From the NCBI GenBank assembly GCA_944392105.1, contig CALXVM010000006.1, positions 1 to 64,000 on the forward strand: DNA of 64,000 nt. Direction: 5' to 3'. Every line of letters begins with the position of its first letter. The first letter of the stretch is position 1. The notes beneath the pieces are model-generated. The model worked only from the letters and a program-made list of their open reading frames with translations, was not told where the DNA came from and searched no databases. Origin of the DNA: an uncultured Clostridia bacterium (GTDB lineage: Bacteria > Bacillota > Clostridia > TANB77 > CAG-508). Positions 796 through 27,736 of this stretch are shown piece after piece. A program made the position numbers and the translations under genes.

Positions 796-2436
796 TCAAG
801 CATTTTGCGTTTTTTCTTTTTGAAATTTATTTAAAAATTTACTTCCATAAGGAATCATATAAATTTCATTTTTTGAAAAAGTTTTTAAAATAATAATCAT
901 AATAGTATATACTATTATAGAAAATAACATTGTAATAATTAAAGACATGTTTGCATTAATAATGTTTGTTAGTGTAGTATATAAGACTTTTGAACTAATA
1001 GCCATTACAAGCACAGCAATTAATGGTTTTATTATAAATTTGTTTTTTTCAAACTTTATTCCTAATTTTTTCTTTAATATGGTTAATTCTATTGTTAAAA
1101 CAACTATATGACATATAACAGAAGAAAATGCTGCTCCTGCTGTACCTCCAAGTATAAATGTTTCGTTATTAATTGGTACTAAAATTAAATTAAGTACAAG
1201 TTTAACTATGCCTCCTATAGCTAAAGCAATTGCTGGAACAAAAACATTTCCAATACCATGTAGAGTAGCCCCTACTGTTTGCTCCATTAAAATAAAAATT
1301 ATTCCTAAACAACTTATTTGATATATAAATTCTCCTGTTGCGGCATTTGGAAACAATAACAACAATATTTGTTTTGCATATAAAATCATTCCTACCATGC
1401 ATGGCATTCCTATTAAAATACTAACCAAAAGAGAAAATTTTATACGCTTTTCTACTGTTTTTTTATCATTTTTTGCCATTGCCTTTGATATAGATGGAAC
1501 TAGTGCTGTTGCAAAAGCCATATTAAATGACATAGGAATTGTTACTAATGTTTCAACCTTTCCACTAAGTATACCATACTGTATCTTAGCACTTTCTTCT
1601 GTCATAATTTTTTTTAATCCCCTTACTACCGTCATAGAATCTATATTTCTGTTTAAGGCACCAAATATTGCACTTAATGACATTGGTATAGATACAAACA
1701 ATATTTGCTTTATTGTTCTTCGTATTCTAGTGGGCTTATAATTGACTGTATTTTTTATTTCGTTGGCTATTATAGGTCTTATTGTCCTATAGTAATTTAC
1801 TAAATACATAAAGCATGTAAAAGCAGATAAACTTGTAGCTAAATTTGCTCCAGCTGCCATTACTACTGTATCCATTCCGGAAATTATACTTAAAGCATTT
1901 ACTATTAATATTGTAAATAAAGTTTTAAATACTTGTTCTAAACTTTGAGATTTCGCTGTAACCGTTATATTTTCCCTTCCATTAAAATATCCTTTTATTA
2001 CAGCAATTACTGACACGAAAAATATAGATGGTGAAAGAGCTACAAGTGCCATTTCTGCTTCTGGTATTTGCAAAAATGTATTTGATATTGTATGAGCACC
2101 TAAAAACAATATCATTGAGCAACAAAAACCAATAAAAGAAAATGTTAATAATGCAATTTTAAAAATTTTGTGTGCTCCTCTATGGTCTCCTATTGCAACT
2201 CTTTCTGATACTAACTTAGATAATGCATTTGGAACTCCCATTGCAGAAATTGTAAGTAACAATGCATATACTTGAAACCCACTACTATAAATAGCATTGC
2301 CTTTGTCTCCAAAACCTTCTTTATTTGTTAAATATAACTTATATACTAACCCTAGCACTTTAACAAATACTTGTGATACCATTAATACAACAACACTTTT
2401 CATAAAGCTTTCTTTTTTTAATTTTTTTCTTTTCAT
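796..2436 (-). CDS. MOP-superfamily flippase, MurJ/SpoVB-like
   Basis: A 546-residue integral membrane protein with about 14 hydrophobic segments, of the polysaccharide biosynthesis / SpoVB / MurJ type in the MATE-like MOP superfamily. Such proteins flip undecaprenyl-linked wall precursors across the membrane. Supporting stretches are the N-terminal VFVKVLGLVYKLYLTN, the early GVPNALSKLVSE and ATALVPSISKAMAKND in the second half. The basic N-terminal tail follows an AAAGGAGAAAA ribosome binding site. It is divergent from the coupling-protein gene. Whether it is the vegetative MurJ, a sporulation SpoVB or a capsule flippase cannot be decided from this window. Confidence 0.85.
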   Translation of the reverse strand: MKRKKLKKESFMKSVVVLMVSQVFVKVLGLVYKLYLTNKEGFGDKGNAIYSSGFQVYALLLTISAMGVPNALSKLVSERVAIGDHRGAHKIFKIALLTFSFIGFCCSMILFLGAHTISNTFLQIPEAEMALVALSPSIFFVSVIAVIKGYFNGRENITVTAKSQSLEQVFKTLFTILIVNALSIISGMDTVVMAAGANLATSLSAFTCFMYLVNYYRTIRPIIANEIKNTVNYKPTRIRRTIKQILFVSIPMSLSAIFGALNRNIDSMTVVRGLKKIMTEESAKIQYGILSGKVETLVTIPMSFNMAFATALVPSISKAMAKNDKKTVEKRIKFSLLVSILIGMPCMVGMILYAKQILLLLFPNAATGEFIYQISCLGIIFILMEQTVGATLHGIGNVFVPAIALAIGGIVKLVLNLILVPINNETFILGGTAGAAFSSVICHIVVLTIELTILKKKLGIKFEKNKFIIKPLIAVLVMAISSKVLYTTLTNIINANMSLIITMLFSIIVYTIMIIILKTFSKNEIYMIPYGSKFLNKFQKEKTQNA

Positions 2437-21862: not shown

Positions 21863-21936
21863 TTATTCAAGTTTTATTTTCATAATTTCATCTTCTGTTA
21901 AACCTGTTAATTCTATTATATCTTTTATAGGCATGT
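21863..21936 (-). pseudogene. 3' remnant of an Rpn-family nuclease gene
   Basis: The minus strand encodes MPIKDIIELTGLTEDEIMKIKLE and a stop. This matches the C-terminal tail of the complete Rpn-type protein at 56021-56866 (DIIIKATGLTKEELEKIKKE). Only the tail is left, joined directly to the broken prepilin copy, so a deletion has fused the two genes. Confidence 0.7.
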
Positions 21937-22558
21937 TCCTTTTTCACTATTTCCATATAAACTACTACATGCATCATTTAATAATTTTACTCCATTATTA
22001 TATCCTTGTGCTTCTCCTAAATATACTGTTCCTGTAGTTGGAGCACTTGGTACTAATTCCACAGTACCTGTTTCGTTGTCTATACTTAGCACTTTCCAGC
22101 TTGATATATTAAAATCTTCTCCTGTGCTACTGTTTAATGTCACATCGTCTGTTGTTTCTGTTTTCGTTGACGAGCAATATTTTGCTTGCCAATTGTATGT
22201 TCCACTTGGGTTATAGATTACTGTCGAACCTACTTCAAGTCCTACTGGAACTGTTGGCTCTTCTGGTGTTGTACTTTCTCCTATTCCATTTAGCATATTT
22301 TCCATATAGCCTGCTAGTTCGTTCATTTGGGCTTGCTCATTTATTACTGCTTGGTTTGTTTTTTCTGCTGCCTCTCTTGCTTTTGCTATTATTCCATTTT
22401 CACTAAATACTAAACTTATTGTTATTCCTGCTAATATCAATAATACTACAATCGTAACAACCAACGCTATTAATGTTATTCCGCTTGTTGTTCCTATGGT
22501 ATTTCTGTAAAGGTTTAGCACTTATTAAGTTTGCTCTCTTTCTTGTTTCTGCTTTCAC
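21925..22558 (-). pseudogene. Truncated, frameshifted prepilin-like gene (copy 1)
   Basis: Copy of the prepilin-like gene at 58305-59583. A GTG at 22558 with AGGAGG six bases upstream opens a basic leader (MKAETRKRANL...HRNNK). A +1 shift is then needed to enter the prepilin frame GITLIALVVTIVVLLILAG. The next 150 residues match copy 2 closely, including NWQAKYCSSTK and DFNISSWKVLSID. Homology stops abruptly after GNSEKG, where the sequence runs into the Rpn tail. The lectin-like C-terminus and variable segment are missing. The alternative GTG at 22521 is in the prepilin frame but has no ribosome binding site. Confidence 0.8.
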
Positions 22559-22600
22559 CTCTTTCCTCCTACATTTTCTTTCTTTTGTTATTATTCCCAA

Positions 22601-25794: not shown

Positions 25795-27141
25795 CTACAG
25801 ATTTTCCAAATTTTTCTCTATAAATGATGTATCATAATTGTTATTTATAAAATCTGCATTTTCTAAAATTTTATATAAAAAATCTATATTAGTAGTTATT
25901 CCATCTACTATAAATTCTCCTAATGCACTTTTCATTTTTGCTATACACTCATTTCTGTCTTTTCCATGAACTATAACTTTTGCAATCATAGAGTCATAAC
26001 AAGCTGGAATTGCATAATCTGCATAAATTGCTGTATCTACTCTTATACCATTTCCTCCTGGCAAATGTAAGCCTGTAATTTTTCCAGGACATGGCATAAA
26101 GTTTTTAGCAGGATTTTCTGCATTTACTCTACATTCCATAGCGTGTCCTGTAAAGGTAATATCTTTTTGATTGTAACTTAGCTTTTCTCCACTTGCAATT
26201 CTTATTTGCTCTTTTACAATATCTATACCTGTTACAAACTCAGTTACTGGATGTTCTACCTGTAGTCTTGTATTCATTTCCATAAAATAAAAGTTCTTAT
26301 TTTTATCAACTAAAAATTCTATTGTTCCTGCATTACTATATCCAACTTCTTTTACAGCTTTTACAACTGTTTCACCCATTTTTTTCCTTATTTTATCATC
26401 AATTGCCATAGATGGGCTTTCTTCTAATACTTTTTGATGTCTTCTTTGTATAGAGCAGTCTCTCTCTCCTAAATATACTGCATTTCCGTGTTCATCTGCT
26501 AAAATTTGAATTTCAACATGTCTTGGATTTTCTACAAATTTTTCTATGTAAATGCTGTCATCATTAAAGGAATTTTTAGCTTCTTGTTTTACTAAGTCAT
26601 ATTCCTTAACAAGTTCTTTTTCTGAATAAGCCACCCTTATTCCTTTGCCTCCACCACCTGCTGAGGCTTTTAAAATAACTGGATATTCTATTTTTTCTGC
26701 AATCTTTATTGCTTCTGAAATGCTATTTATAACGCCGTCTGAACCAGGAACTACAGGCACTCCAGCTTTTTTCATAGTTTCTTTAGCTTTAGATTTATTT
26801 CCCATAAGATCTATCATCTTATAATTTGGTCCTATAAACTTTATTCCTATTTCATCACAAATTTTAGCAAAGTGAGCATTTTCTGATAAAAATCCGAAAC
26901 CTGGATGTATACTATCACACCCGGTTAAGCAAGCTGTTTCTATAATATTTTTAATATTTAGGTAACTTTTGCTTGATTTAGCAGGTCCAATACATACTGC
27001 TTCATCTGCAAGTTTTACATGTAAAGCATCTTTATCTGCTTCTGAATATACAGCAACAGATTGTATGCCCATTTCTCTACATGCTCTTATTATTCTTACT
27101 GCTACTTCTCCTCTATTTGCAACTAAAACTTTTTTTAACAT
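25795..27141 (-). CDS. accC: Acetyl-CoA carboxylase, biotin carboxylase subunit
   Basis: ATP-dependent carboxylation of the biotin on AccB. A 448-residue ATP-grasp enzyme: KVLVANRGEVAVRIIRACREMG at the N-terminus, the glycine-rich KASAGGGGKGIRVAYSEKEL, EKFVENPRHVEIQILADEHGNAVYLGERDCSIQRRHQK, and FLVDKNKNFYFMEMNTRLQVEHPVTE with the metal ligands and catalytic Arg. Full length. The adjacent upstream gene on the same strand would normally be fabZ, but a foreign opposite-strand gene lies between. Confidence 0.98.
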   Translation of the reverse strand: MLKKVLVANRGEVAVRIIRACREMGIQSVAVYSEADKDALHVKLADEAVCIGPAKSSKSYLNIKNIIETACLTGCDSIHPGFGFLSENAHFAKICDEIGIKFIGPNYKMIDLMGNKSKAKETMKKAGVPVVPGSDGVINSISEAIKIAEKIEYPVILKASAGGGGKGIRVAYSEKELVKEYDLVKQEAKNSFNDDSIYIEKFVENPRHVEIQILADEHGNAVYLGERDCSIQRRHQKVLEESPSMAIDDKIRKKMGETVVKAVKEVGYSNAGTIEFLVDKNKNFYFMEMNTRLQVEHPVTEFVTGIDIVKEQIRIASGEKLSYNQKDITFTGHAMECRVNAENPAKNFMPCPGKITGLHLPGGNGIRVDTAIYADYAIPACYDSMIAKVIVHGKDRNECIAKMKSALGEFIVDGITTNIDFLYKILENADFINNNYDTSFIEKNLENL

Positions 27142-27153
27142 ATATTTTTCTCC

Positions 27154-27182
27154 TTGTTATTATTAAATATTTGTGTTAGAAT
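27154..27182 (+). promoter_or_regulatory. Promoter of the foreign 116-residue gene
   Basis: TTGTTA (27154-27159) and TAGAAT (27177-27182) are spaced by 17 bp, directly upstream of an AGGGAG ribosome binding site and the ATG at 27197. It faces away from accC, whose start codon lies 13 bp to the left. Confidence 0.6.
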
Positions 27183-27196
27183 AGTCATACAAACTC

Positions 27197-27547
27197 TTGA
27201 AGGGAGTGTTTATAATGAATGAAGTTGCCACTTATTTCTATGAACTTGGTCAGCAAGACTCTCTCAAGTTCAAGCGTCATGTTAAGGCAACTGTTGAGGC
27301 AGACAATTCTTGCTTCTACCGGCTCGGCGTGCTGAGCGTACGGTACGAGAATTGCCCCACCCGTTTAGCCCTTGTGAAGGAACTTTGTCGGGAGTTTTCG
27401 TTCTATAGCGAACTTCCAAACCTTGCAGTCATTACTTTAAAAAATGACTACAGTCATCGTCTCCTTAAGCGAGTCATGGATAATCTTGGATATCATATTC
27501 CAGCACGTCCAGACTTAATTGGTTTTAACGCATGGAGATTTTTCTAA
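27197..27547 (+). CDS. Unknown 116-residue protein of foreign composition
   Basis: Not recognised. A soluble, slightly basic protein beginning MNEVATYFYELGQQDSLKF, with RYENCPTRLALVKELCREFSFYSELPNLAVITLKNDYSHRLLKRVMDN in the middle. There is no signal, membrane segment or catalytic motif. Codon and base use differ sharply from all neighbours: 34 of 60 bases are G or C at 27301-27360, with CGG, CTC and GCG-rich codons against about 30% G+C around. It has its own promoter, ribosome binding site and strong terminator and is inserted against the direction of the acc/fab cluster. Horizontal acquisition is likely; the donor is unknown. Confidence 0.75.
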   Translation: MKGVFIMNEVATYFYELGQQDSLKFKRHVKATVEADNSCFYRLGVLSVRYENCPTRLALVKELCREFSFYSELPNLAVITLKNDYSHRLLKRVMDNLGYHIPARPDLIGFNAWRFF

Positions 27548-27567
27548 TTCAACATTCTATTCACTTT

Positions 27568-27600
27568 CTGGATGGCTCTGCCATCCAGATTTATTTTTTT
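27568..27600 (+). terminator. Terminator of the foreign gene
   Basis: CTGGATGG and CCATCCAG form a perfect 8-bp G+C-rich stem with a CTCTG loop, followed by ATTTATTTTTTT, 20 nt after the stop codon. Confidence 0.9.
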
Positions 27601-27736
27601 AACAAATTTTTTAACTTTTAATCTCGTATATTCATATTAATTAATTTGCTACAATCAAAGCTTCTTTTTTTATCTCATGTAATTAATCTTAATTAATTCA
27701 TCTTACATTATTTTAAATATTATACTTAATTAAAAT

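What the first reader, a model, noticed from the sequence alone, without database searches (positions are those of the whole stretch)
27154..27600. Foreign self-contained gene cassette inside the acc/fab cluster
The 116-residue gene has its own promoter, ribosome binding site and strong terminator, lies opposite to the operon and splits fabZ from accC. Its base composition (34 of 60 G or C at 27301-27360) and codon use are unlike any neighbour. No transposase or repeats are visible at the edges. It is a recent gain of unknown origin with an unrecognised protein.
Basis: partly seen in the sequence, partly recalled or inferred. Interest (0 to 1): 0.6.

Follow-up and report, generated by a model that had tools for sequence, protein, structure and literature searches.

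The report
Old antisense gene inside fatty-acid operon
A small, fast-changing gene of unknown family sits backwards inside the fatty-acid synthesis operon of a group of uncultured Clostridia; it is an old resident that many relatives have lost, not a recent arrival, and its unusual codons go with an unusually folded messenger RNA.

Summary
Its codon use is an extreme outlier (GC3 0.43; genome sample 0.17 +/- 0.04). The interpretation 'recent foreign gain' fails: the same gene, with an alignable promoter and leader, is antisense at fabZ-accC in 18 genomes of three genera, and some emptier junctions look like deletion scars. I infer one old gain and repeated losses. The odd codon use is shared by 24 of 25 family members although synonymous sites are saturated, so it is maintained, not a mark of recent arrival. 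New here: the coding RNAs fold far more stably than codon- and dinucleotide-preserving shuffles (mean z about -3 against -0.7 in controls), with the start region kept open. The product is a basic alpha/beta protein of about 13 kDa under purifying selection, modelled confidently, with no clear Pfam, NCBIfam, PHROG or PDB match. The layout is that of a noncontiguous operon. Regulation of accCDA, high expression and nucleic-acid binding are inferred, not shown.

The parts
27154..27182 (+). sigma-A-type promoter TTGTTA-N17-TAGAAT; the -35 overlaps the complement of the accC ribosome binding site
   Evidence: 9 of 12, TG before -10; conserved in relatives
27200..27206 (+). Shine-Dalgarno AAGGGAG
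   Evidence: conserved in all relatives aligned
27215..27547 (+). CDS, 110 aa, uncharacterised basic alpha/beta protein (pI 8.8)
   Evidence: omega about 0.1-0.2 among close relatives; AlphaFold2 mean pLDDT 89, pTM 0.81; homologs in the taxonomic family
27567..27599 (+). intrinsic terminator TCTGGATGGC-TCT-GCCATCCAGA plus T tail; no T run on the operon strand, so one-way
   Evidence: sequence
25795..27141 (-). accC, biotin carboxylase; head to head with the gene, 73 bp between the two start codons
27737..28159 (-). fabZ; upstream operon gene, convergent with the insert
27142..27736 (.). interrupted fabZ-accC junction; 18-39 bp in relatives with a clean junction

Best explanation
This is a lineage-restricted small-protein gene that settled in the fab/acc operon before the genera carrying it split, and has since been lost many times. 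SHOWN by sequence: own conserved sigma-A promoter and Shine-Dalgarno, one-way terminator, opposite orientation between co-directional operon genes, a protein under purifying selection but diverging several times faster than its neighbours, and (family-wide) coding RNAs more folded than codon- and dinucleotide-preserving shuffles, with the start region kept open. INFERRED: (1) it is well expressed, and the folded, GC-rich mRNA is selected for stability, which would explain the maintained odd codons (about 0.5); (2) because the ancestral 18-39 bp junction had no room for an accC promoter, operon transcription must run through the insert, so the two transcripts are complementary over the whole gene and the layout acts as a noncontiguous operon, in which opposing transcription, polymerase collision and RNase III cutting set accCDA output relative to the upstream fab genes (about 0.4); (3) the product is a small nucleic-acid-binding protein, from its basic charge and an R3H-like order of helices and strands (about 0.3).
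For: Conserved place and leader. Tree of AccB+FabZ+AccC: presence needs 9 changes (shuffled mean 15), compatible with one old gain in the G000/g2 clade and repeated losses. Scars with decayed promoter and leader at L088, L096, L100 (judged by eye). Purifying selection, omega 0.10-0.19 in close pairs; gene distance 0.56 where acc/fab distance is 0.06. GC3 above the flanking genes in 24 of 25 members and CGN arginine use far above the hosts'. RNA folding: mean z -3.05 and -3.01 with dinucleotide control against -0.67 in controls, Mann-Whitney p 2.7e-6; against 90 host segments at -0.65 and 46 E. coli segments at -0.71, p about 1e-10 and 1e-8. Open start, paired body. Noncontiguous-operon precedent menE-menC-MW1733-ytkD (PMC7154746).
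Against: No expression data, so read-through from fabZ to accC and any effect on accCDA are untested, and a weak accC promoter inside the insert is not excluded (one search finds only poor sites). The window's own copy has one of the weaker folding signals (z -1.3 to -1.9). No conserved RNA helix. Gene distances track acc/fab distances only weakly (Mantel r 0.29, p 0.065) and dS is about twice that of neighbours in most pairs, so some exchange between species is likely. Members outside the operon (G030, G033, G088, G851, G188) show that the operon position is not essential. R3H resemblance is only Z about 3, with no profile match.
Confidence: 0.45

Rival explanations
1. A mobile 'moron'-like cassette family from a GC-richer pool (phage, plasmid or other bacteria) that keeps re-entering or being replaced at this junction by recombination in the conserved fabZ and accC flanks; the foreign codons reflect repeated renewal from the donor pool.
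For: Codon use unlike every host; dS higher than in the flanks and distances only weakly congruent; patchy presence; several different sites across genera; tandem second copy in G111; other unrelated inserts at the same junction in G004, G006, G020.
Against: No homolog in 50,697 phage or 72,556 plasmid records, nor in a pattern scan of viral contigs that reaches close relatives only; no member outside the taxonomic family in samples of 391 class and 398 phylum genomes apart from one weak hit broken by stops; no recombinase or terminal repeats; promoter and leader conserved better than the CDS.
Confidence: 0.25
2. A free-standing small-protein gene whose place is incidental: antisense orientation is simply the only one tolerated, because a strong one-way terminator in the sense direction would cut off accCDA. 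No regulatory coupling.
For: The terminator is one-way and members elsewhere keep the same self-contained layout; where neighbours are co-directional the gene is antisense at all four kinds of site, as this predicts.
Against: Its promoter -35 overlaps the accC ribosome binding site in all 10 leaders aligned from the fabZ-accC site, and the antisense overlap with the operon RNA is complete if the operon is read through, which makes zero effect unlikely.
Confidence: 0.25
3. Recent single acquisition from a foreign donor.
For: Codon and base composition of the window copy.
Against: Same gene and place in G007, G024, 14 genomes of genus g2 and G861; saturated synonymous divergence between G000 and G007.
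Confidence: 0.04
4. Assembly chimera or spurious ORF.
For: None found.
Against: Same arrangement in independent assemblies; strong purifying selection.
Confidence: 0.01

Closest known systems
Noncontiguous operon menE-menC-MW1733-ytkD-MW1731 of Staphylococcus aureus (Saenz-Lahoya et al. 2019, read through the review PMC7154746)
   Same: A protein-coding gene on the opposite strand inside a co-directional metabolic operon, so that its mRNA would be complementary to an untranslated stretch of the operon mRNA.
   Different: Fatty-acid rather than menaquinone operon; a fast-diverging gene lost in many relatives; coding RNA unusually folded; overlap and mutual regulation not measured here. Protein relatedness to MW1733 was not tested.
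R3H domain (Pfam PF01424), single-stranded nucleic-acid-binding fold
   Same: Order of helix-strand-helix-strand-strand and basic charge; two R3H chains among the best structural matches of the short member (1whr Z 3.4, 4.8 A over 76 residues; 1ug8 Z 3.1, 4.0 A over 69).
   Different: No Arg-x3-His motif (His-x3-Lys at the matching place by my reading), no profile match to local R3H domains, Z low enough to be chance.
Phage morons and other self-contained cargo genes (general knowledge)
   Same: Own promoter and terminator, opposite orientation, composition unlike neighbours.
   Different: Not found on any element here; old and place-conserved.

Membership tests
Noncontiguous operon | Protein-coding gene on the opposite strand between genes of one operon | tested here: met
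   relatives without the gene have fabZ-accC junctions as short as 18-39 bp, as expected of one operon
Noncontiguous operon | Flanking operon genes co-transcribed through the opposite gene | not testable with these tools
   needs RNA data; the terminator is one-way, which would allow it
Noncontiguous operon | Mutual regulation by transcriptional interference and RNase III processing | not testable with these tools
   needs experiments
R3H domain | R3H fold | tested here: inconclusive
   best R3H chains Z 3.1-3.4 for the short member; Z 2.5 for the window model
R3H domain | Arg-x3-His motif and profile similarity | tested here: not met
   no R3H hit in Pfam scans; hhalign against 20 local R3H domains aligns 1 column
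Transposable element or integrated mobile cassette | Recombinase gene or flanking repeats | tested here: not met
Known anti-phage defence protein | Match to a PADLOC model | tested here: not met
   0 of 20 members match; an undescribed defence gene is not excluded
Known structured RNA | Match to an Rfam family | tested here: not met
   no match in the window region; only T-box leaders next to the L009 and L010 copies

The most novel reading that the evidence does not exclude
The coding sequence is selected both as a protein gene and as a folded RNA: a bifunctional messenger whose structure (not one fixed fold) is maintained across the family and keeps GC-rich, rare codons in AT-rich hosts, acting as a durable antisense RNA against the fab/acc operon message and possibly bound by its own basic protein product.
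Probability: 0.2. Interest if true: 0.75.

Novelty: new variant of a known kind. Interest (0 to 1): 0.5.

Why it matters
If the layout works as inferred, a fast-evolving small gene tunes membrane-lipid synthesis in a family of uncultured Clostridia by lying backwards inside the operon. Close relatives with and without the insert make it a natural comparative test of noncontiguous operons. The family also warns against reading odd codon use as recent transfer: here it persists at saturated synonymous divergence and goes with excess mRNA structure, a pattern that invites a search for other genes of this kind.

Tried and rejected
Profile scans: Pfam (best Herpes_gI E 0.044, far under cut-off), PHROGs, NCBIfam and PADLOC gave nothing shared by several members. 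The PDB sequence search gave only weak unrelated hits. Foldseek: no match at E 0.001 in PDB or BFVD for the window model, nor in PDB for the short member. Sporulation sigma-E promoter: a CATACA box at 27186 fits by eye in the window but is not kept in G007, whereas the sigma-A site is. Weak hits inside ORFs of 662-1177 aa (one, L030, looked like Mfd by eye) were judged chance: E about 1e-4 in what seems one conserved protein, and none among solved structures. Short metal-binding HMA-like ORFs (L026, L027, L125) were rejected as a shared generic strand-helix-strand pattern. Ribosomal-protein-like codon selection was rejected: ribosomal genes have low GC3, although their messages tend to be more folded than other genes, not significantly (p 0.07). 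Net amelioration could not be tested: too few polarised changes. A conserved RNA fold was not found.

Full report
OBSERVATION. The gene is real. The best start is ATG 27215 (110 aa), not the TTG at 27197: AAGGGAG at 27200-27206 is spaced for it and the whole leader is conserved in relatives. A sigma-A-type promoter (27154-27182) and a one-way terminator (27567-27589 plus T tail) frame it. By consensus scan alone the promoter is no better than chance in this AT-rich stretch; its weight comes from conservation. It lies opposite to fabF-accB-fabZ-accC-accD-accA. The composition claim is exact: 34 of 60 G+C. GC3 is 0.427 against 0.168 +/- 0.043 in 106 ORFs from about 120 kb of the same genome; the only ORF with a higher value is a 101-codon ORF that I take, unchecked, to be antisense to rRNA. 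Codon choice is about six standard deviations from the mean and no closer to ribosomal proteins.

NOT A RECENT GAIN. A relative of 66-67% identity sits at the same place in G007, known also as record JAGHJM010000070.1. Profile searches of the taxonomic family found members in many genomes, most in a second genus, g2. In g1, g2 and one genome of g19 the gene lies between fabZ and accC, opposite to both. In G035 it lies between accB and fabZ, again opposite. One further g1 genome, G024, has a very divergent copy at the junction, found by place and supported by profile comparison (hhalign probability 75%, E 2.6e-5, a single-pair comparison). Of the 26 readable junctions in g2, 14 hold the gene; the others are 18-54 bp or 90-177 bp, and three of the latter (L088, L096, L100) look by eye like deletion scars with a decayed promoter and leader. 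On a tree of AccB+FabZ+AccC, presence needs 9 changes against a shuffled mean of 15; I read this as one old gain and repeated losses, but gains and losses cannot be told apart by counting. Promoter and leader align across g1 and g2 with 74% mean column identity, while the proteins of those genera differ by 46-66% from the window's.

EVOLUTION OF THE PROTEIN. Close pairs give omega 0.10-0.19, so the protein is under purifying selection. It nevertheless diverges much faster than its neighbours: 0.56 against 0.06 for G087-G297. Synonymous divergence is about twice that of the flanking genes in most pairs and saturated between G000 and G007 (pS 0.84 against 0.51-0.54). Part of this could follow from the higher GC3; exchange between species is also possible, since gene distance follows acc/fab distance only weakly (Mantel r 0.29, p 0.065).

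CODONS AND RNA STRUCTURE. Of 25 members, 24 have GC3 above their flanking genes (0.23-0.51 against 0.11-0.22; G851 is equal at 0.13 and 0.12), and arginine CGN codons, rare in the hosts, make up about half or more of arginine codons in nearly all. At saturated synonymous divergence a merely foreign signature should have faded, so either selection keeps it or transfer renews it. I then asked whether RNA structure could be the reason. With synonymous codons shuffled within each gene (same protein, same codon counts), all 25 coding RNAs fold more stably than the mean of their shuffles, mean z -3.05. With dinucleotide counts also held nearly constant the mean is -3.01, against -0.67 for 15 window control segments (p 2.7e-6). 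Wider controls give -0.65 (90 host segments) and -0.71 (46 E. coli segments). The window's own copy is weak (-1.3 to -1.9). The leader and first ten codons are, if anything, more open than in shuffles (p 0.04 and 0.08) and the body more paired, strongest in its second half. No helix is conserved across the family and no Rfam family matches: structuredness, not a fold, is shared. Long hairpins are only modestly in excess (79 against 62 expected), so the structure is spread out. These tests were chosen after looking at the data, and members are not fully independent, though most pairs are saturated at synonymous sites.

THE PRODUCT. Two AlphaFold2 models, of the window protein (pLDDT 89, pTM 0.81) and of the short G030 member (pLDDT 93, pTM 0.81), agree on an N-terminal helical part followed by helix-strand-helix-strand-strand. 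Most members are basic, pI 8-10. The most conserved stretch is around YSHRLLK...GY. No curated family or solved fold matches clearly. R3H domains appear among the best of a poor list (Z 3.1-3.4), without motif or profile support. Nucleic-acid binding is therefore only a lead.

MECHANISM. Clean relatives leave no room for an accC promoter, so the ancestral arrangement was most likely one operon. With the insert, fabZ-accC read-through RNA would be complementary to the entire + strand mRNA, and the insert's promoter points away from accC from within its ribosome binding site. This is the layout called a noncontiguous operon, where transcriptional interference and RNase III processing were reported in S. 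aureus (PMC7154746). Whether that happens here is untested. Where neighbours are co-directional the gene is antisense at all four kinds of site found, which is equally explained by terminator polarity. Elsewhere it lies next to spoIIID facing rimO (G030) or divergent from a T-box valS beside a cation-efflux gene (G033, G088).

VERDICT. A new, taxonomically restricted small-protein family in a known kind of arrangement, with a maintained codon and RNA-structure signature that I could not match to anything described. Gene names of neighbours (accC, fabZ, rimO, valS, spoIIID and so on) are my readings of the translations and of similarity to the window's proteins.

Noticed in passing
window 22403-22600 and 21925-22521 (-): A pilin-like N-terminal segment (GITLIALVVTIVVLLILAG) is in a different frame from the ORF that has the strong Shine-Dalgarno; possibly a frameshifted pilin-like gene.
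   Followed up: partly
L051 (G020) and L056 (G006), fabZ-accC junction: A 187-190 bp hairpin-rich insert with inverted repeats at the same junction, in two close genomes; looks like a small non-coding repeat element.
   Followed up: partly
L053 (G004), fabZ-accC junction: An unrelated gene, HD-hydrolase-like by eye, inserted in operon sense at the same junction.
   Followed up: no
L016 (G111) 973-1308 and 1456-1785 (-): Tandem second copy of the gene, much diverged and acidic (pI 5.6), with its own promoter and leader.
   Followed up: partly
L017 (G220) 1513-1827 (-): A TAG cuts the gene before its conserved C-terminal strand; the downstream frame still reads FHAWR, so probably a recent truncation.
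   Followed up: no
L108 8795-10160 (-), same genome as the window: An ORF that reads like adenylosuccinate synthetase has GC3 0.33, second highest of the sampled ORFs.
   Followed up: no
L106: Ribosomal-protein messages tend to fold more stably than codon shuffles in this genome (contig mean -1.29 against -0.57; p 0.07).
   Followed up: partly
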